NCBI GenBank assembly: GCA_025869365.1
Contig: JAOZVV010000113.1
Span: 1-41,939, forward strand
Length of the DNA: 41,939 nt
Direction: 5' to 3'
DNA from: Pseudonocardia sp.
Lineage (GTDB): Bacteria; Actinomycetota; Actinomycetes; Mycobacteriales; Pseudonocardiaceae
Part shown: positions 25,484 through 32,830 of the stretch, one piece after another
Position numbering within the stretch: position 1 is the stretch's first letter
Layout of the letters: the number at the start of each line of letters is the position of its first letter
Position numbers and translations under genes: made by a program
Notes under the pieces: generated by a model
Database searches by the model: none
What the model saw: only the letters and a program-made list of their open reading frames with translations
Told to the model about the DNA's origin: nothing

Positions 25484-25888
25484 TCATCCGACCACCGCGA
25501 GCGCGTCGATCTCCACGAGCATGATCTCGTGCGGGAGGTCGACGAACACGGTGGTCCGGGCCGGCAGCGCGCCGCTCGGGACGTGCTCGGCCACGAACTC
25601 GCCGTAGACCTCGTTCATGGCGGGGAAGTCCCCCCGGTCCGTGAGGTAGACGCGGAACATCAGCACGTCCTCCACGGACGAGCCGCCCGCCTCGAGGATC
25701 GCGCGGACGTTCTCGAGCGTGCGCCGGGTCTGGACGCGGACGTCGCCCTCGCCGATGTAGGTGGCGGTTCCCGGGTCCATCGGCCCCTGGCCGGACACCT
25801 GCACCAGCCCGCCCTTGCGGACGGCCTGGCTGAAGGTGTGCGCCGGGGCGGGTGCGGCGTCGGTCCGGACGACGGTCTTGCTGCTCAT
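25484..25888 (-). CDS. RidA family enamine/imine deaminase
   Basis: 134 aa. RidA proteins hydrolyse reactive 2-aminoacrylate-type enamines/imines released by PLP dehydratases to keto acids and ammonia. Seen: AVRKGGLVQVSGQGPMDP, GDVRVQTRRTLENVRAILEAGGSS, VEDVLMFRVYLTD and the substrate-carboxylate-binding LPARTTVFVDLP. Its ATG overlaps the stop of the upstream IclR gene as ATGA, placing it third in a kinase-IclR-RidA operon. Given the divergent PLP-dehydratase gene, its substrate is probably the imine formed from an amino sugar acid or D-amino acid. It may be specialised rather than the housekeeping RidA. Confidence 0.93.
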   Translation of the reverse strand: MSSKTVVRTDAAPAPAHTFSQAVRKGGLVQVSGQGPMDPGTATYIGEGDVRVQTRRTLENVRAILEAGGSSVEDVLMFRVYLTDRGDFPAMNEVYGEFVAEHVPSGALPARTTVFVDLPHEIMLVEIDALAVVG

Positions 25889-26649
25889 GCGCGGTGGCCT
25901 TTCGAGGACGGCTGCCAGCCGTGGTCCCGGGAGATCCGGTCCGTGACGGCCAGCAGGGACGGGACCAGCTCGACGAGCCGGTCGTAGCTCAGGACGATGT
26001 CCGGGACCGAGACCGAGACCGCGGCGACGGCCCGGCCCGAGGCGCTGCGGACCGGGGCGGCGATGCAGTTGATGGAGCGCTCGTTCTCCTCCTTGTCGTG
26101 CGCCCAGCCCTGCTCGCGCACCCGGGCGAGCTCGGCCAGGTAGTCCGCGCGGGTGACGAGGGTGTTCGGGGTGGCCCTGGTGAACTCGACGCCGGCGAGC
26201 ACGGCCTCGAGCTCGGCCGGCGGCAGGTCCGCGACCAGCGCCTTCCCGGCCGCCGTCGAGTGCACCGGGGCGCGCAGGCCGATCCGCGACGCCATCCGCA
26301 CGTGGTCGTGGGACTCCAGCTTGTCGATGTAGACGATCTCGCTGCCGACCAGCTCGGACAGGTGCGTGGTGCGGCCGTGCTCCGCGTTGAACGCGGCCAG
26401 GTGCGGTGCCGCGATCCCCCGGACCTCGCGCTGGTCCAGCCCGCGGGAGGACAGCTCGAAGATCGTGGCGCCGAGGTGGTAGCGGTGGTGGCCGTCCCGG
26501 TAGACGAAGTGGTCCTCGGCGAGGGTGCGCAGCAGGCGCAGGACGGTGGTCTTGTGCACGCCGAGCGCGCCCGCCAGATCGTCCAGGGAGGCGGGCCCGG
26601 CGCCGAGCCGGACCAGGATCTGCAACGCCTTCCCGAGGCTCGCACTCAT
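25885..26649 (-). CDS. IclR family transcriptional regulator
   Basis: 254 aa, starting at the ATG at 26649 that overlaps the upstream kinase stop as ATGA. N-terminal winged helix-turn-helix (about 1-62): KALQILVRLGAGPASLDDLAGALGVHKTTVLRLLRTL. C-terminal effector domain (about 75-245): AAPHLAAFNAEHGRTTHLS, YIDKLESHDHVRMASRIG, HSTAAGKALVA, EENERSINCIAAPV. IclR proteins of this type bind sugar-acid or aromatic-acid effectors. Sitting inside a sugar-acid operon divergent from the permease operon, it most likely controls both through the palindromes at 27696-27731. Effector (KDG, KDPG or the amino sugar acid) is inference. Confidence 0.93.
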   Translation of the reverse strand: MSASLGKALQILVRLGAGPASLDDLAGALGVHKTTVLRLLRTLAEDHFVYRDGHHRYHLGATIFELSSRGLDQREVRGIAAPHLAAFNAEHGRTTHLSELVGSEIVYIDKLESHDHVRMASRIGLRAPVHSTAAGKALVADLPPAELEAVLAGVEFTRATPNTLVTRADYLAELARVREQGWAHDKEENERSINCIAAPVRSASGRAVAAVSVSVPDIVLSYDRLVELVPSLLAVTDRISRDHGWQPSSKGHRA

Positions 26650-27641
26650 CGGGCGACCTCCCGCACACCGACCGCGGACACGACCACGTCCGCCCACTCC
26701 CGTTCCCCGGAGCCCAGCAGCCGGGACACGGTCCGTGCAGGCAGCGGCGCCGCCGAGTCCCCGGAGACGGTGAGCACCGCGGCCGCGCCGAGATGCCCGC
26801 GGCGCAGGCAGCGCCGGATCGGTTCCCCGCCGGCGAGGCCGGTGAGCAGGCCCGCGGCGAACGCGTCCCCCGCACCGACCGGTTCCACGACGTCGACGCG
26901 CAGCGCGGGCTGCTCCACCACGTCCCCGTCCCGGTCGACGGCCAGCGCGCGCCGCGCACCGTCCTTGATCACCAACAGCGCGGGCCCCGGGAGCAGCCGC
27001 CGCAGGGCGACCGGGTCGTCCGTCCCGAGGACGCGCCGCGCCTCGTCGCCGCCCACGAGGACCACGTCCGCGAGCCCGGCGAGCCCCACGACCACGGCCG
27101 GGTCCCCCGCGGGCCACATCTGCTCCCGCCAGTTGACGTCGAACACCGCCCGCCCGCCGCGCGGCACGGACAGCACCTCCCGCATCAACGCGGCGCACGA
27201 GTCCGACAGTGCGGCGGTGATGCCGCTGACGTGCACGAACGACGCCGCGGCGAGGCGCTCACGCACGGGCGGCCGGGCCAGGAAGGCCGGGCCCATCGCC
27301 GAGGCCGCCGACCCCGCGCGGCGGTAGTGCATGCGGGTGGCGGGCTCGCCGTCCGGCCCGAGCGAGACGGACTTGGCGTAGGAACCGGTGGGGCGTACCG
27401 GATCGATCTCCACCGCGCCGGTGTCCACGCCGCCCGCGTCGAGCGCGGACCGCACCGCGGCACCGAGCGCGTCGTCGCCGAGGCGGCCGACCCACGCGGC
27501 CGCGACGCCCGCGCCGGCGAGGCCGAGCGCGACGTTCACCTCGGCGCCCGCCGCCCGGGCCAGGGCGGCGTCCGGTTCGCCGGTGGGCACGTCCGGCAGC
27601 AGCGCGAGCGCCTCTCCCAGACAGACGACCGTCGGCTGCAT
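26646..27641 (-). CDS. PfkB-family sugar kinase, probable 2-keto-3-deoxygluconate kinase
   Basis: 331 aa from the ATG at 27641; an upstream in-frame start would run through the operator region. Ribokinase-fold: N-terminal VVCLGEALALLPD, GAEVNVALGLAGAGVAAAWVGRLGDDALG, the small-lid region with YRRAGSAASAM, FDVNWREQMWP, and the anion hole/catalytic base EPVGAGDAFAAGLLTGL. The FDVN(W/Y)R element and a YRRxxSA segment are typical of KDG kinases. It would phosphorylate 2-keto-3-deoxygluconate to KDPG, which the aldolase in the divergent operon can cleave. First gene of the minus-strand operon. Fructokinase-like alternatives are less consistent with the neighbours. Confidence 0.85.
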   Translation of the reverse strand: MQPTVVCLGEALALLPDVPTGEPDAALARAAGAEVNVALGLAGAGVAAAWVGRLGDDALGAAVRSALDAGGVDTGAVEIDPVRPTGSYAKSVSLGPDGEPATRMHYRRAGSAASAMGPAFLARPPVRERLAAASFVHVSGITAALSDSCAALMREVLSVPRGGRAVFDVNWREQMWPAGDPAVVVGLAGLADVVLVGGDEARRVLGTDDPVALRRLLPGPALLVIKDGARRALAVDRDGDVVEQPALRVDVVEPVGAGDAFAAGLLTGLAGGEPIRRCLRRGHLGAAAVLTVSGDSAAPLPARTVSRLLGSGEREWADVVVSAVGVREVAR

Positions 27642-27678
27642 ACCGCTACCCCCACGCGTTGACGCTCGGACCGCGGCG

Positions 27679-27708
27679 ATGCTACAACCTGCACAGCAAA
27701 TTTTGCAA
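27679..27708 (-). promoter_or_regulatory. Candidate promoter of the kinase-IclR-ridA operon
   Basis: On the minus strand TTGCAA (27703-27708) and TAGCAT (27679-27684) are separated by 18 bp, matching the -35/-10 consensus at four of six positions each. This would give a leader of about 30 nt before the kinase ATG. The -35 overlaps the operator palindromes. Confidence 0.35.
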
Positions 27709-27731
27709 CGCGCATTGCGTACCACGCAATG
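27696..27731. promoter_or_regulatory. Operator palindromes between divergent operons
   Basis: Two inverted repeats lie in the 137-bp divergent gap: GCAAA-T-TTTGC at 27696-27706 and CATTGCGT-ACC-ACGCAATG at 27713-27731 (8-bp arms, 3-nt spacer). Both carry GCAA/TTGC half-sites. The AT content is locally high in a GC-rich genome. The likely ligand is the IclR regulator encoded next door. Confidence 0.65.
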
Positions 27732-27778
27732 ATGCAGTTCGCAGCCCGGGTCACGGCCGTCAAAGGAGACACAGACCT

Positions 27779-29071
27779 ATGACCGGAACGACCAGCCCGC
27801 CGCGGGACACCTCCGCGGACCTCCGTCCGGGGCCGCTGGCGAAGGCCCTGCCCGAGGCGGCGGGGAGTGCCACCGTGGGCGAGTTCCTCGCCACCGGGCC
27901 CCGGCTCTCCGCGTTCGGCACCCCGCTGCTGGTCCTCACCGGCACCGCGCTGCGGGAGAACGCGGCACGGATGGCGGCCTGGTGCGGCGAGCGTGGGGTC
28001 GGGCTGGCGCCGCACGGCAAGACGACGATGGCCCCCACGCTGTGGGACCTGCAGCTGCGGGCCGGCGCCTGGGGCATCACCCTCGCCACGCCGTCGCAGG
28101 TCAGGGTCGGTCTGCGGTTCGGGGTCCGGCGGATCATGCTCGCGAACTCCCTGGTGGACCCGCACGGCGTCGCCATGGTGGCCGGGGCCCGGGACGCCGA
28201 TCCCGGCCTCGACGTCCTGACCTGGGTGGACTCGGTCGAGACGGTCGCCGCCATGGAGCGGGCGCTGCCCGCGGCCCCCGCGCGGCCGTTGACCGTGCTG
28301 GTGGAGCTGGGGGCACCGGGCGGCCGCACCGGGGCGCGCGGTGTGGCCGCTGCGCAGGCCGTCGCCGCGGCGGTCGTCGCGAGCCCGGACCTGGTGCTCG
28401 GCGGGGTGAGCGGCTACGAGGGAGCGCTCGCGCACGACGCCTCGCCCGCCTCGCTCGACGCCGTCCGCGCCTACCTCGAGGACCTGGCGGTGCTGCACCG
28501 GAGCCTGCGCTACGAGACGGACGAGGTCGTCGTCACCGCCGGGGGCAGCGCGTACTTCGACGACGTCGCGGACGTGCTCGGCCCCCTCGCCGACGACCGG
28601 ACGCGGGTGCTGCTGCGCTCCGGCGCCTACCTCGTCCACGACGACGGCTTCTACCGCGGCATCTCCCCCTTCGCGCGCCCCACGGGACCAGGGGCCGGCG
28701 GATCGCCGTTCCGCTCGGCGATGCACGCCTGGGCGCGGGTCGTCTCCGTCCCGGAGCCCGGCCTGGCGCTGCTCGACGCGGGCAAGCGGGACGTCCCCTA
28801 CGACGAGGGCCTGCCCGAGCCGCAACTGCTCGCGGACTCCCTGGGCGGACCCGCCACCCCGCTCACCGGCGAGATCACCGCCGTCAACGATCAGCACGCG
28901 TTCCTGCGCACCCAGGTGCCGGTCCGGGTAGGGCAGGTCGTCCGGCTCGGCCTGTCCCACCCGTGCACGGCGTTCGACAAGTGGCAGTGGATCCCGGTCG
29001 TCGAGGACGACCCGGAGCACGGCAGCGAGCCGGACCCGGTGGTCGTCGACCTGGTCAGGACGTACTTCTGA
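27779..29071 (+). CDS. Fold-type III PLP enzyme (D-serine dehydratase-like), probable amino sugar acid deaminase
   Basis: 430 aa, ATG with AAGGAG at 27763-27768. The alanine-racemase-type barrel binds PLP through Lys81 in GLAPHGKTTMAPTL. The C-terminal DSD1-like beta-domain ends with LSHPCTAFDKW, whose His394 and Cys396 match the zinc-binding His-x-Cys of eukaryotic-type D-serine dehydratases. Known relatives are D-serine dehydratases, D-threonine aldolases and amino acid deaminases. Reaction proposed: beta-elimination of water from a D-configured beta-hydroxy amino acid such as D-glucosaminate, giving an imine for RidA and finally 2-keto-3-deoxygluconate. It is first in a four-gene operon, and its TGA overlaps the next ATG by one base. 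Confidence 0.85.
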   Translation: MTGTTSPPRDTSADLRPGPLAKALPEAAGSATVGEFLATGPRLSAFGTPLLVLTGTALRENAARMAAWCGERGVGLAPHGKTTMAPTLWDLQLRAGAWGITLATPSQVRVGLRFGVRRIMLANSLVDPHGVAMVAGARDADPGLDVLTWVDSVETVAAMERALPAAPARPLTVLVELGAPGGRTGARGVAAAQAVAAAVVASPDLVLGGVSGYEGALAHDASPASLDAVRAYLEDLAVLHRSLRYETDEVVVTAGGSAYFDDVADVLGPLADDRTRVLLRSGAYLVHDDGFYRGISPFARPTGPGAGGSPFRSAMHAWARVVSVPEPGLALLDAGKRDVPYDEGLPEPQLLADSLGGPATPLTGEITAVNDQHAFLRTQVPVRVGQVVRLGLSHPCTAFDKWQWIPVVEDDPEHGSEPDPVVVDLVRTYF

Positions 29072-30660
29072 TGCGCACCCTGATCCGCGGGGCCACGGTC
29101 GTCGACGGGACCGAGAGCTCCCGCTACCGCGCGGACGTCCTGCTCGACGGGGACCGGATCGCCGCGATCGGCTCCCCCGCCGCGGCCGACCGGGTCATCG
29201 AGGCGGACGGGCTCGTCCTGTGCCCCGGCTTCATCGACATGCACGCCCACTCGGACCTGCGGATCCTCACGAGTCCGGACCATCTGGCGAAGATCAGCCA
29301 GGGCGTCACCACGGAGCTGCTGGGCCAGGACGGGCTGTCCTACGCCCCGGTCGACGACGCCGCACTGGCCGTCCTGCGCCGCAAGATCGCGGGCTGGAAC
29401 TCCGATCCGCGGGACTTCGACTTCTCCTGGCGCAGCGTCGGCGAGTACCTCGACCGGCTGGACCGGGGGATCGCCGGGAACGCCGCGTACCTCGTCCCGC
29501 ACGGCGTGGTCCGCGCGCTCGTGTGCGGCTGGGACGACGTGCCCGCGAGTGACGCGGACGTCGAGGCGATGCGGGAGATCGTCCGGACCGCGATGGAGCA
29601 GGGCGCCGTCGGGATGTCCGCGGGGCTGACCTACACGCCGGGGATGTACGCGGACGACGCCGAGCTGCTGGCGCTCTGCCGGACCGTCGGCGGGCTCGGC
29701 GGGTTCTTCGCGCCGCACCACCGCTCCTACGGCAAGGGCGCGCTCGAGGCCTACGCCGAGATGATCGACCTGACGACGCGCGCCGGCTGTCCCCTGCACC
29801 TCTCGCACGCCACGCTGAACTTCGGCCCGAACAAGGGCCGCGCGGGCGCGCTGATCACCCTGCTCGACGACGCGATCGCCGCGGGCGCGGACATCACCCT
29901 CGACACCTATCCCTACCTCCCGGGGGCGACGACGCTGTCGGCGATCCTGCCGAGCTGGTCGTCCGCGGGCGGGCACACCGCCACGCTGGACCGGCTGCGG
30001 GACCCGGTGGCGCTGGCCCGGATCCGGGAGGACCTGGAGGTCCACGGCTCGGACGGCTGCCACGGCGTCACCGCCGAGTGGGAGACGATCGAGATCAGCG
30101 GGGTGACGAACCCGGCGCTGGCCCACACCGTGGGCAGGACGATCGAGCAGCTGGCAGCGGGACGGGACCCCTTCGACGTCTGCGTCGAGCTCCTGCTCGC
30201 GGACGACCTCGGCACCGGCATCCTGCAGCACGTCGGGCACGAGGAGAACGTGCAGGCGATCATGCGCCACCCGCGGCACACGGGCGGGAGCGACGGCCTG
30301 CTCGTCGGTGCGAAGCCCCACCCGCGGGCGTGGGGAACGTTCCCGCGCTACCTCGGCCACTACTGCCGTGAGCTGGGGATGTTCTCGCTGGAGGAGTGCG
30401 TCGCGCACCTCACGGGACGCGCGGCGGCCCGGCTCCGGCTCACGAACCGCGGGCTCGTCCGCGAGGGCTACGCCGCGGACCTCGTCCTCTTCGACCCGGA
30501 CACCGTCGCGGACACCGCCACGTTCGCGGAACCGGCACAGCCCGCCGCCGGGATCCCCTACGTGATCGTCAACGGCGAGCTCGCGATCGAGGACTCGCGC
30601 CGCACCGACGCACTGGCCGGGCGCGCGCTGCGCCGCGGGCCGGACGGGAGCACCTCATGA
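29071..30660 (+). CDS. N-acyl-D-amino-acid deacylase (D-aminoacylase family)
   Basis: 529 aa. Amidohydrolase superfamily: N-terminal beta-sandwich (LIRGATVVDGT), metal motif FIDMHAHSD (His58, His60), LHLSHAT in mid-barrel, and HTGGSDGLLVG with the catalytic Asp, then the closing sandwich (GYAADLVLFDPDTV). In classical D-aminoacylases the strand after QGVTTE ends in NCG, whose Cys binds zinc; here it reads GQDGLS with Asp87 in that place, indicating a distinct subgroup. It would remove the N-acyl group from a D-configured 2-amino acid, with N-acetyl-D-glucosaminate as the favoured substrate from context. Start and stop overlap both neighbours (TGATG and ATGA). Confidence 0.87.
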   Translation: MRTLIRGATVVDGTESSRYRADVLLDGDRIAAIGSPAAADRVIEADGLVLCPGFIDMHAHSDLRILTSPDHLAKISQGVTTELLGQDGLSYAPVDDAALAVLRRKIAGWNSDPRDFDFSWRSVGEYLDRLDRGIAGNAAYLVPHGVVRALVCGWDDVPASDADVEAMREIVRTAMEQGAVGMSAGLTYTPGMYADDAELLALCRTVGGLGGFFAPHHRSYGKGALEAYAEMIDLTTRAGCPLHLSHATLNFGPNKGRAGALITLLDDAIAAGADITLDTYPYLPGATTLSAILPSWSSAGGHTATLDRLRDPVALARIREDLEVHGSDGCHGVTAEWETIEISGVTNPALAHTVGRTIEQLAAGRDPFDVCVELLLADDLGTGILQHVGHEENVQAIMRHPRHTGGSDGLLVGAKPHPRAWGTFPRYLGHYCRELGMFSLEECVAHLTGRAAARLRLTNRGLVREGYAADLVLFDPDTVADTATFAEPAQPAAGIPYVIVNGELAIEDSRRTDALAGRALRRGPDGSTS

Positions 30661-31310
30661 CGGCATCGGCACCGGCACCGGACCCGGGAGCCCTGTTCCG
30701 GGACCGCGCGCTGGCGGTCGTCCGCGCCGAGCGGATCCCGGACGTCGCCGCGCTGTGCCACGCGCTGGCGGACGGCGGTGTCCGGACCGTCGAGCTGACC
30801 TTCACCACCCCGGGCGTGCTCCCGCTGCTCGAGGAGGCGGCCGGCCACCCCCGGGCCGAGGTCGGGGTCGGGACGGTGCTCACCGCGGACCAGGCGAAGG
30901 CCGCGATCGACGCGGGCGCGAGCTTCCTCGTCACCCCCGGCCTGCGACGGGCGGTGGCCCAGGTCGCCGTCGCCGCGGGCGTCCCGGTGTACCTCGGCGC
31001 GTTCACCCCCACCGAGGTGGCCGAGGCGATGGACCTCGGCGCGAGCGCGGTCAAGATCTTCCCGGCCGGCCGGTTGGGCCCCGGCTACCTCCGTGACCTG
31101 CTCGGTCCCTACCCGCAGGCCCGGCTGCTGCCCTCCGGCGGCGTCTCCGCGGACAACGCGGCGGAGTTCCTCGCCGCCGGTGCCGCCGCCGTCTGCGCCG
31201 GGACGTCCGTCGTGCCCCCCGCTGCGGTCGCCGCCGGCGACTGGAGCCTGATCACCGCCCGCGCCCGGGCCTTCTCCGCCGCACTCACCCCCTTCCGGAA
31301 GGAGCGCTGA
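30657..31310 (+). CDS. 2-keto-3-deoxy-6-phosphogluconate aldolase
   Basis: 217 aa. Class I aldolase of the KDPG/KHG family, splitting KDPG into pyruvate and glyceraldehyde-3-phosphate. Seen: VVRAERIPDVAALCHALADGG, the general base Glu46 in VELTFTTPG, VGVGTVLT, GASFLVTPGL and the Schiff-base Lys133 in SAVKIFPAG, then LLPSGGVSADNAAEFLAAGA for phosphate binding. Its ATG overlaps the deacylase stop (ATGA) and its TGA overlaps the permease ATG (TGATG). No Entner-Doudoroff dehydratase (Edd) is nearby, so its KDPG most likely comes from the PfkB kinase. Confidence 0.93.
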   Translation: MTASAPAPDPGALFRDRALAVVRAERIPDVAALCHALADGGVRTVELTFTTPGVLPLLEEAAGHPRAEVGVGTVLTADQAKAAIDAGASFLVTPGLRRAVAQVAVAAGVPVYLGAFTPTEVAEAMDLGASAVKIFPAGRLGPGYLRDLLGPYPQARLLPSGGVSADNAAEFLAAGAAAVCAGTSVVPPAAVAAGDWSLITARARAFSAALTPFRKER

Positions 31311-32830
31311 TGTCCGACTTCGTCGACTGGCTGCAGCACGACACGGCAGGCCTGCTCACGCTCGCCGCGGTGAGCGTGGCCGTCCTGCTGGTTCTGATCA
31401 TCAAGTGGAAGCTCGAGCCGTTCATCGCGCTGATCGTGGTCGGCGTCGCCGTCGCGCTCGTCGCGGGACTGCCCGTCACCGAGATCGTCGGGACACCGAT
31501 CAAGTCCGCGGACTCGCTGCTGGAGAAGGGCTTCGGCAGCATCCTCGGGCACATCGCCCCGATCATCGGCCTCGGCACGGTGCTCGGCGCGATCATGGAG
31601 CGGTCCGGTGGCGCGGACGTGCTCACCACCCGGCTGCTCAGGGTGTTCGGCCCGAAGGGCGCGCCGCTCGCGATGGGGCTGACCGGCCTGATCCTCGGCA
31701 TCCCGGTGTTCTTCGACATCGGGATCTTCGTGCTCGCGCCGCTGGTCTACGTCGCCGCGAAGCGCGGCGGGCGCTCGCTCGTGCTCTACGCGATGCCGAT
31801 GCTCGCCGGGCTGTCCATGACCCATGCGTTCCTGCCCCCGCACCCGGGTCCGGTCGCCGCGGCCGGGCTGCTGGGCGTCGACATGGGCTGGATCATCATC
31901 ATGGGCCTGGTCTGCGGGATCCCGGCCTGGCTCGTCAGCGGCGTGTGGTGGGGCTCGTTCATCGGCAAGCGGATCGTCGTTCCGGTGCCGGACGAGGTCG
32001 TCCCCGACCTCCCGGCGGACGGGGACGACCGCCGCGCCGACGGCAGCGACGGTGACGGTGGCGGTGGCGGTGGCAGTAGCAGGGGCGACGGCAGCGGCGG
32101 GTCCGGTCCGGCCGGCGGCACGGCCACCGCGACGACGACCCCGGCCGTCCGCATCCGCCCGCCCTCGGTCGGGCTGATCGCCGCGATCATCGCCGTGCCC
32201 ATGGTGCTCATCCTCGGCGCCACGGTCGGTGCGATCACGCTGGCCGACGGCTCCGCCCTGCGCTCGGTCCTGCTGTTCCTCGGGACCCCGACGATCGCGC
32301 TGACGATCGCGGTGCTGCTCGCGATGTACCTGCTCGGCATCCGGCGGGGCATGACGGTCACGGAGCTCGGCCGGGTGACCGGCGAGTCCCTGAAGCCGAT
32401 CGGCATGATCCTGCTGGTCGTGGGCGCCGGGTCGTTCTTCGGGGCCGTGCTGCGGGCGACCGGGGTCGGTGACGCGCTGGCCGGCTCGATGACCGCGATC
32501 GGCCTGCCCGTGATCGTCTCCGCCTACGTCATCAGCGCCGCGCTGCGGCTGGCCCAGGGCTCGGCGACCGTCGCGATCGTGACCACCGCCGGGATCATCG
32601 GCCCGACCGTCACCGCGGGCGGTTTCTCCCAGGCCCAGGTCGCGCTCATCGTCGTCGCGGTGTCCGCCGGCTCGATCATCGCGAGCCACGTCAACGACGG
32701 CGGGTTCTGGATCGTGGCCAAGTACTTCAACATGTCCGTGAAGGACACGCTGAAGACCTGGACCGTGCTCGAGACGATCCTGTCCGTGGTCGGCTTCGCG
32801 ATGGCCGGACTCGTGTGGCTCGTGGTGTAG
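31310..32830 (+). CDS. Gluconate:H+ symporter family permease (GntP/GntT)
   Basis: 506 aa, polytopic. Hydrophobic segments begin at about residue 13, and further helices run to the C-terminus, consistent with 12-14 spans. Family motifs include GFGSILGHIAPIIGLGTVLGAIMERSGGA, FFDIGIFVLAPLVY, THAFLPPHPGPVAAAGLLG, LRLAQGSATVAIVTTAGI and ASHVNDGGFWIV. Relatives import gluconate, idonate, 2-keto-3-deoxygluconate or D-serine by proton symport. A Gly/Ser/Asp-rich insert of about 50 residues (230-283) in a central loop is low complexity and probably a flexible cytoplasmic linker. It is the last gene of the operon; the cargo is probably the acylated amino sugar acid or a breakdown acid. Confidence 0.93.
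   Translation: MSDFVDWLQHDTAGLLTLAAVSVAVLLVLIIKWKLEPFIALIVVGVAVALVAGLPVTEIVGTPIKSADSLLEKGFGSILGHIAPIIGLGTVLGAIMERSGGADVLTTRLLRVFGPKGAPLAMGLTGLILGIPVFFDIGIFVLAPLVYVAAKRGGRSLVLYAMPMLAGLSMTHAFLPPHPGPVAAAGLLGVDMGWIIIMGLVCGIPAWLVSGVWWGSFIGKRIVVPVPDEVVPDLPADGDDRRADGSDGDGGGGGGSSRGDGSGGSGPAGGTATATTTPAVRIRPPSVGLIAAIIAVPMVLILGATVGAITLADGSALRSVLLFLGTPTIALTIAVLLAMYLLGIRRGMTVTELGRVTGESLKPIGMILLVVGAGSFFGAVLRATGVGDALAGSMTAIGLPVIVSAYVISAALRLAQGSATVAIVTTAGIIGPTVTAGGFSQAQVALIVVAVSAGSIIASHVNDGGFWIVAKYFNMSVKDTLKTWTVLETILSVVGFAMAGLVWLVV

What the first reader, a model, noticed from the sequence alone, without database searches (positions are those of the whole stretch)
25484..32830. Complete candidate pathway for N-acetyl-D-glucosaminate (oxidised chitin end) catabolism
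Seven genes in two divergent coupled operons supply every step: gluconate-type permease, D-aminoacylase-type deacylase, DSD-like PLP dehydratase, RidA, PfkB/KDG-type kinase, KDPG aldolase, and an IclR regulator. Seen: the genes, ATGA/TGATG overlaps and motifs. Known: a marine Pseudoalteromonas oxidative chitin route turns 2-acetamido-2-deoxygluconate into KDPG, acetate and ammonia by D-amino-acid-like steps. Inferred: that this actinobacterial set does the same. A Gram-positive version in one compact locus would be notable. An alternative is catabolism of another N-acyl-D-amino or 2-amino sugar acid.
Basis: partly seen in the sequence, partly recalled or inferred. Interest (0 to 1): 0.88.

Follow-up and report, generated by a model that had tools for sequence, protein, structure and literature searches.

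The report
Actinobacterial operons for oxidised chitin sugar
A soil-type actinobacterium carries a compact, widely conserved gene set that most likely consumes N-acetylglucosaminic acid, the oxidised end-sugar of chitin, using several parts unlike those of the studied marine Gram-negative version.

Summary
In detail: seven genes in two divergent operons with stop/start overlaps. The set recurs in 80 named loci of 23 genera. In 19 of 80 a GH20 hexosaminidase and sugar-importer genes lie alongside, in 15 also a lactonase. In Microbacterium the deacylase is fused to GH20, in a run with DSD, ROK genes and nagB. A palindrome TTGC-N7-GCAA lies between kinase and DSD genes in 72 of 72 clusters having both (shuffled mean 1.1), and again before the importer-GH20 operon in five loci. 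Carriers lacking the local kinase have a kinase-aldolase pair elsewhere in 8 of 9 genomes. Best reading: GlcNAc1A to acetate, ammonia, pyruvate and glyceraldehyde-3-phosphate. It is not the ong system: the deacylase has Asp for the metal Cys and other pocket residues. The host genome (90% complete) gave no LPMO_10, GH18 or GH20 match, so it probably scavenges monomer. No reaction was assayed.

The parts
25484..25888 (-). RidA-family protein (enamine/imine deaminase type)
   Evidence: PF01042; 36% to the P. piscicida RidA of the ong-type cluster
25885..26649 (-). IclR-family regulator, KdgR-like but below that model's cut-off
   Evidence: PF01614, PF09339
26646..27641 (-). PfkB sugar kinase, probable KDG kinase
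   Evidence: PF00294; best PDB match Thermus KDG kinase 1v19; NCBIfam KDG kinase equivalogs below cut-off
27714..27730 (.). Palindromic operator candidate ATTGCG-TACCA-CGCAAT in the divergent promoter region
   Evidence: TTGC-N7-GCAA in 72 of 72 kinase/DSD intergenic regions; RTTGC-N7-GCAAY only three times in the own genome
27779..29071 (+). DSD-like fold-type III PLP enzyme, probable D-glucosaminate ammonia-lyase
   Evidence: PF14031; best PDB match 3gwq; 33% to P. piscicida OngC-type protein
29071..30660 (+). D-aminoacylase-fold deacylase, probable GlcNAc1A deacetylase; His58, His60, Asp87, His216, His246, Asp408
30657..31310 (+). KDPG aldolase
   Evidence: TIGR01182 above cut-off
31310..32830 (+). 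GntP-family permease, probable GlcNAc1A importer
   Evidence: PF02447, TIGR00791 above cut-off

Best explanation
The locus is a self-contained catabolic module for N-acetyl-D-glucosaminate (GlcNAc1A), probably controlled by its IclR protein. GntP imports it; the D-aminoacylase-fold enzyme removes acetate; the DSD-like PLP enzyme eliminates ammonia, with RidA helping the enamine/imine step, to give KDG; the PfkB kinase makes KDPG; [quoted passage not shown] In relatives, an ABC importer and a GH20 hexosaminidase (separate, or fused to the deacylase) extend this to the disaccharide GlcNAc-GlcNAc1A. Shown: genes, coupling, conservation, operator motif, fusion, context. Inferred: every reaction, the substrate, and that IclR reads the operator. 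In this host the likely input is free monomer made by others.
For: Kinase and KDPG aldolase imply a 2-keto-3-deoxyhexonate; aldolase homologue in 20 of 20 carriers lacking a local one, kinase homologue in 10 of 10 carriers lacking a local one, adjacent to each other in 8 of the 9 genomes in both sets. GH20 beside the cluster in 19 of 80 loci, importer permeases 19, binding protein 17, lactonase 15; in three Arthrobacter genomes the only GH20 matched in the genome is the one beside the cluster. Deacylase-GH20 fusion, 120 of 120 listed long relatives carry both domains, in a same-strand run with DSD, ROK repressor, ROK kinase and NagB, with NagA and a second GH20 near. Operator 72 of 72 and at the start of the importer-GH20 operon in L034, L036, L041, L044, L050. 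In L146 the DSD gene is replaced by a DgaE-like enzyme, a family whose named member acts on D-glucosaminate-6-phosphate, with the same operator. Parallel to the assayed ong enzymes.
Against: Pocket residues that hold GlcNAc1A in PpOngB are changed: Glu226 to Tyr, Lys254 to Thr, Ser290 to Gly, Ser291 to Ala, Ser292 to Thr; Thr at 292 lowered PpOngB activity. 61 of 80 loci have no GH20 beside the cluster; own genome has none, nor GH18 or LPMO_10. DSD relatives also sit with amino-acid ABC transporters. Deacylase relatives at 52-56% (L145, L147-L153) have no DSD or DgaE match nearby. No assay.
Confidence: 0.74

Rival explanations
1. Catabolism of another 2-acetamido-2-deoxy-aldonate (N-acetyl-galactosaminate or -mannosaminate, or a different N-acyl group) by the same chemistry.
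For: The deacylase pocket differs from that of PpOngB. A K. pneumoniae plasmid cluster pairs OngB/OngC-like genes with galactonate-type kinase and aldolase, so such variants may exist.
Against: The kinase is nearest to KDG kinases and the aldolase passes the KDPG aldolase model; the fusion gene runs with nagB and lies near nagA.
Confidence: 0.1
2. Catabolism of N-acyl-D-amino acids such as N-acetyl-D-serine or -threonine; kinase and aldolase serve something else.
For: The fold is that of D-aminoacylases; OngC itself also deaminates D-serine and D-threonine; DSD relatives lie beside amino-acid ABC transporters.
Against: Kinase in 71 of 80 loci under the shared operator; GH20 fusion and GH20/importer neighbours; the Lys that binds the alpha-carboxylate in D-aminoacylases is missing in 81 of 81 clade sequences.
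Confidence: 0.08
3. The deacylase acts on an oxidised oligosaccharide or lactone rather than the monomer acid, and the permease carries a different form of the substrate.
For: Deacylase-GH20 fusion; lactonase in 15 of 80 loci; altered carboxylate-binding residues.
Against: 61 of 80 loci have no GH20 beside the cluster, and the own genome none at all.
Confidence: 0.06

Closest known systems
ong oxidative chitin pathway of Pseudoalteromonas prydzensis (Jiang et al. 2022, PMC9537276; parts 1 and 4 of 9, section 13 and passages seen)
   Same: Deacylase of D-aminoacylase fold, fold-type III PLP deaminase, RidA, PfkB kinase; in relatives also GH20. Same proposed intermediates up to KDPG.
   Different: IclR not RpiR; GntP or ABC importer not SSS plus TonB receptor; KDPG aldolase in the operon; deacylase with Asp for the metal Cys and changed pocket; identities 22-36% to a P. 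piscicida cluster.
PpOngB GlcNAc1A deacetylase, PDB 9kb1/9kb3/9kb4 (PMC12017989; parts 1-4 of 8 and passages seen)
   Different: Cys97 to Asp, Glu226 to Tyr, Lys254 to Thr, Ser290-292 to Gly-Ala-Thr; separate branch.
D-aminoacylases AfDam (1m7j) and BbDam (3gip)
   Same: Fold and general metal-site layout.
   Different: Asp instead of Cys; the conserved carboxylate-binding Lys is absent.
[quoted passage not shown]
   Same: Leads to KDPG; IclR and a RutC (RidA-type) gene accompany a DgaE-like gene in the haloarchaeal chitinase clusters.
   Different: The haloarchaeal route is predicted to go through deacetylated glucosamine and glucose dehydrogenase; the window uses a DSD-like enzyme.

Membership tests
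ong cluster (PMC9537276) | At least four co-occurring genes with over 30% identity to ong genes (the paper's own rule, for the ACAM 620 cluster) | tested here: not met
   Tested against P. piscicida proteins as stand-in: deacylase 32%, DSD 33%, RidA 36%, kinase 22%; loci with GH20 (31%) would have four
ong cluster (PMC9537276) | SSS transporter and MurR/RpiR regulator | tested here: not met
   GntP and IclR instead
ong cluster (PMC9537276) | RidA, DSD-like deaminase, D-aminoacylase-like deacylase and sugar kinase together | tested here: met
GlcNAc1A deacetylases (PpOngB family) | D-aminoacylase-like barrel fold | tested here: met
GlcNAc1A deacetylases (PpOngB family) | Cys/His/His (subtype V) metal site | tested here: not met
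   Asp87 at the Cys97 position, 81 of 81 clade sequences
GlcNAc1A deacetylases (PpOngB family) | Ser292 and Gln298 specificity residues | tested here: not met
   Thr287 at Ser292, 81 of 81; the Gln298 loop has a long insertion and cannot be aligned with confidence
GlcNAc1A deacetylases (PpOngB family) | Deacetylation of GlcNAc1A | not testable with these tools
   needs an assay
D-aminoacylases (AfDam/BbDam type) | Cys metal ligand and conserved carboxylate-binding Lys | tested here: not met
   Asp87 and Thr248
Fold-type III D-serine dehydratase/OngC-like enzymes | PF14031 domain | tested here: met
   72 bits vs cut-off 22; says nothing of the substrate
KDG kinase (PfkB family) | Curated KDG-kinase equivalog model above cut-off | tested here: not met
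   NF040938 117.7 vs 400
KDG kinase (PfkB family) | KDG-contacting residues of Thermus KDG kinase (Tyr103, Arg105, Arg167, Asp251; list recalled, not from a call) | tested here: met
   Identical in the 1v19 alignment, counted by eye
KDPG aldolase | TIGR01182 above cut-off | tested here: met
   176.9 vs 156.05
GntP symporters | TIGR00791 above cut-off | tested here: met
   373.3 vs 292.75; transported compound not told

The most novel reading that the evidence does not exclude
Actinobacteria assembled a GlcNAc1A pathway separately from the Gammaproteobacteria: a second family of carbohydrate de-N-acetylases, with an Asp/His/His metal site and a rebuilt pocket, was recruited from another branch of the D-aminoacylase fold, put under one conserved IclR operator with Entner-Doudoroff-type enzymes, and in some lineages tied to import of the oxidised disaccharide and its cleavage in the cell, up to a single deacylase-GH20 fusion enzyme.
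Probability: 0.58. Interest if true: 0.8.

Novelty: new variant of a known kind. Interest (0 to 1): 0.72.

Why it matters
The route worked out for LPMO-oxidised chitin ends is reported as complete only in Gammaproteobacteria plus one Betaproteobacterium (PMC9537276, passages). An actinobacterial version would extend it to major soil recyclers of chitin and fungal walls, give a function to many proteins now labelled D-aminoacylase, alanine racemase or family 20 glycosylhydrolase, and supply a second, differently built enzyme for the same deacetylation. It can be tested directly with GlcNAc1A.

Tried and rejected
Tried without support, or against the reading. LPMO_10, GH18 and GH20 in the own genome: no match; it is 90% complete, so absence is not proof. 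BBE oxidase domain: three matches in the own genome; lactonase PF10282: three short matches over the family cut-off (23-28 bits, two of them in one stretch of contig 4); none of these contigs is the window's, not followed further. Resident LPMO as a partner: 12 of 20 carrier genomes examined have one, 8 have not, among these the three Arthrobacter with GH20 beside the cluster and the fusion genome. The two other operator-like sites of the own genome: one lies between genes that look by eye like peptide deformylase and a serine protease, the other 27 bases from a contig end; taken as chance. BBE-type oxidase beside the cluster in three genera: best PDB matches are antibiotic-pathway and hexose oxidases, with N-acetyl-D-hexosamine oxidase 7zzk sixth, so only a lead.

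Rejected: plain gluconate operon (deacylase and DSD unexplained); D-serine operon (kinase, aldolase and GH20 link unexplained); orthology with ong as a unit. The DSD tree sets the two OngC-type rows (L088, L089) apart from the actinobacterial set, but 7 of its 23 inner forks are open; it does not prove separate recruitment of that gene.

Limits of the counts. The first neighbour screen was filled with antisense frames of GC-rich DNA and served only to find leads. The tallies of importer, lactonase, GH20, BBE and DgaE dropped matches under 45% identity; at the looser setting L005 (permeases) and L076 (lactonase) matched too. Operator shuffles kept single-base make-up only; L163, outside that set, has kinase and DSD but no exact site. 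The expected number of sites in the 80 loci by composition is 13.9 against 96 seen. L026 and L039 also lack a local kinase match and were not probed. Gene finding was a home-made GC filter.

Print: no listing or 110 named an actinobacterial or Gram-positive version; one search returned mainly quorum-sensing papers and asked about the enzymes. Beyond the four papers cited for content one more was looked at by passages without use. The library holds only open-licence papers.
Full report
What is there. Between 25484 and 32830 lie seven genes in two divergent, overlapping operons. Minus strand: PfkB kinase (26646-27641), IclR (25885-26649), RidA (25484-25888), joined by ATGA overlaps. Plus strand: DSD-like PLP enzyme (27779-29071), D-aminoacylase-type deacylase (29071-30660), KDPG aldolase (30657-31310), GntP permease (31310-32830), joined by TGATG, ATGA and TGATG. 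The window is contig 113 of a 5.27 Mb genome in 200 contigs, 90.2% complete; the nearest named deacylase locus is a Pseudonocardia MAG at 93%.

Conservation. One scan of named genomes with the deacylase gave 80 loci (the best of more), in 23 genera by title: actinobacteria plus one Sporosarcina. By tblastn: DSD 80 of 80, IclR 78, RidA 73, kinase 71, GntP 71, aldolase 37; all seven 32; all but the aldolase 65. Contig ends cut some loci. In an even draw of the class 54 of 296 genomes (16 of 106 genera), the own one included, have the deacylase at E<=1e-140. Forty wider regions were fetched from these. Of the 20 at 63-66% identity (L125-L144) all have DSD and RidA and 19 have kinase and IclR; where GntP was found it is mostly beyond RidA. 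Relatives at 45-56% vary: L145 and L147-L153 show no DSD or DgaE match, and L151 and L152 show no partner at all.

Missing pieces are found elsewhere. Twenty carriers without a local aldolase match were probed; 20 have an aldolase homologue, at 35-51% for the best matches. Ten carriers without a local kinase match were probed; 10 have a homologue. Nine genomes were in both calls, and in 8 the two genes are neighbours (all but G091). This fits a 2-keto-3-deoxyhexonate intermediate, and it means that the clusters without a kinase do not speak for an amino-acid route.

Link to N-acetylhexosaminides. In 16 loci of Amycolatopsis, Actinocrispum, Actinosynnema, Kibdelosporangium and Actinophytocola the region continues with a sugar-binding protein, two permeases and a GH20; 15 of the 16 also have a 7-bladed lactonase, that of L036 with a twin-arginine signal match. 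In three Arthrobacter loci the permeases and GH20 lie on the RidA side, with the binding protein seen in one (the other two are cut there); in these three genomes the only GH20 matched is that one. In L155 one 1103-residue frame holds deacylase and GH20. A search that by its length rule admits only long proteins found 305 relatives at E<=1e-20; all 120 listed carry both domains, and the rows with a name are Microbacterium but for one actinomycete MAG. On one strand follow DSD, the fusion, a ROK repressor, a ROK kinase and NagB (above cut-off); a second GH20 and NagA (above cut-off) lie some kilobases away on the other strand. This suits splitting of GlcNAc-GlcNAc1A, with nag enzymes for one half and the present pathway for the other. 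The deacylase part of the fusion lies within the clade of the window's protein and has its residues. Starts of the L047 and L080 GH20 proteins show no signal peptide by eye; no predictor was run.

Regulation. The kinase/DSD intergenic region holds TTGC-N7-GCAA in 72 of 72 clusters with both genes (window and 71 loci), against a mean of 1.1 and a maximum of 4 in 200 single-base shuffles. Each of the 20 regions L125-L144 has one; L146 and L164 have one in the divergent gap; L163 has none. In L034, L036, L041, L044 and L050 a further site lies at the start of the importer operon. In the own genome RTTGC-N7-GCAAY occurs three times, once here. That IclR reads it is inferred. [quoted passage not shown]).

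Kinase and aldolase. The kinase is nearest to Thermus KDG kinase among solved structures; four substrate-contacting residues that I recall for that enzyme are identical in the alignment. It misses the curated KDG-kinase cut-offs by far. The aldolase passes its model.

Comparison. A P. piscicida region (L088) has TonB receptor, OngC-like, RpiR, OngB-like, RidA, SSS transporter, kinase and GH20 in a row; I read it as an ong cluster from this order and from its match to 9kb1. Window identities to it: 32% deacylase, 33% DSD, 36% RidA, 22% kinase. The paper assayed OngB, OngC and KdgK, found the RidA gene essential with unknown role, and reports the complete pathway in Gammaproteobacteria and one Betaproteobacterium. 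So the locus works like ong by its parts, and fails ong membership on transporter, regulator, metal site and the identity rule.

Source of substrate. No LPMO_10, GH18 or GH20 match in the own genome; 8 of 20 other carriers have no LPMO_10 match. The simplest view, an inference, is scavenging of GlcNAc1A released by fungi or other bacteria.

Open: what binds the carboxylate in place of Lys254; what the L147-L153 group does for the lyase step; whether the BBE oxidase seen in three genera makes the acid; and the substrate itself.

Noticed in passing
L089:6565-13829 (K. pneumoniae plasmid pKLP00155_3): OngC-like, OngB-like, RidA and SSS genes stand with genes annotated 2-dehydro-3-deoxygalactonokinase and KDPGal aldolase, and an RpiR regulator: an ong-like cluster with galactonate-type lower enzymes.
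   Followed up: partly
PDB 9g5m/9gv8: The solved K. pneumoniae 'N-acyl-D-amino-acid deacylase' reads Ser-Ser-Ser and a Gln at the Ser290-292 and Gln298 positions of PpOngB in the alignment, so it may be a GlcNAc1A deacetylase rather than a D-acylase.
   Followed up: no
L146:7483-12536; L020:4286-5788: DgaE-like PLP enzymes in or next to the cluster; in L146 it takes the place of DSD under the same operator.
   Followed up: partly
L036:3797-5470, L041:2852-4666, L044 from 3673: FAD/BBE-type oxidase beside RidA in three genera, related to hexose oxidase 2wdw and N-acetyl-D-hexosamine oxidase 7zzk; a possible maker of the sugar acid.
   Followed up: partly
P0032: A 700-residue protein carrying both the deacylase domain and GntP domains; another fusion of two cluster genes, or an assembly error.
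   Followed up: no
L091:3523-11606, L092:3548-7596: Other Asp-type 'D-aminoacylases' lie with diaminopropionate ammonia-lyase and YgeY genes, so the wider family has several roles.
   Followed up: no
L088:14656-15555: A beta-propeller-like protein follows the GH20 in the P. piscicida cluster; only weak NCBIfam matches under cut-off. It might be the lactonase of that cluster.
   Followed up: partly
L145, L147-L153: Deacylase relatives at 52-56%, several with kinase and RidA but no DSD or DgaE match nearby; the ammonia-releasing step is unaccounted for.
   Followed up: no
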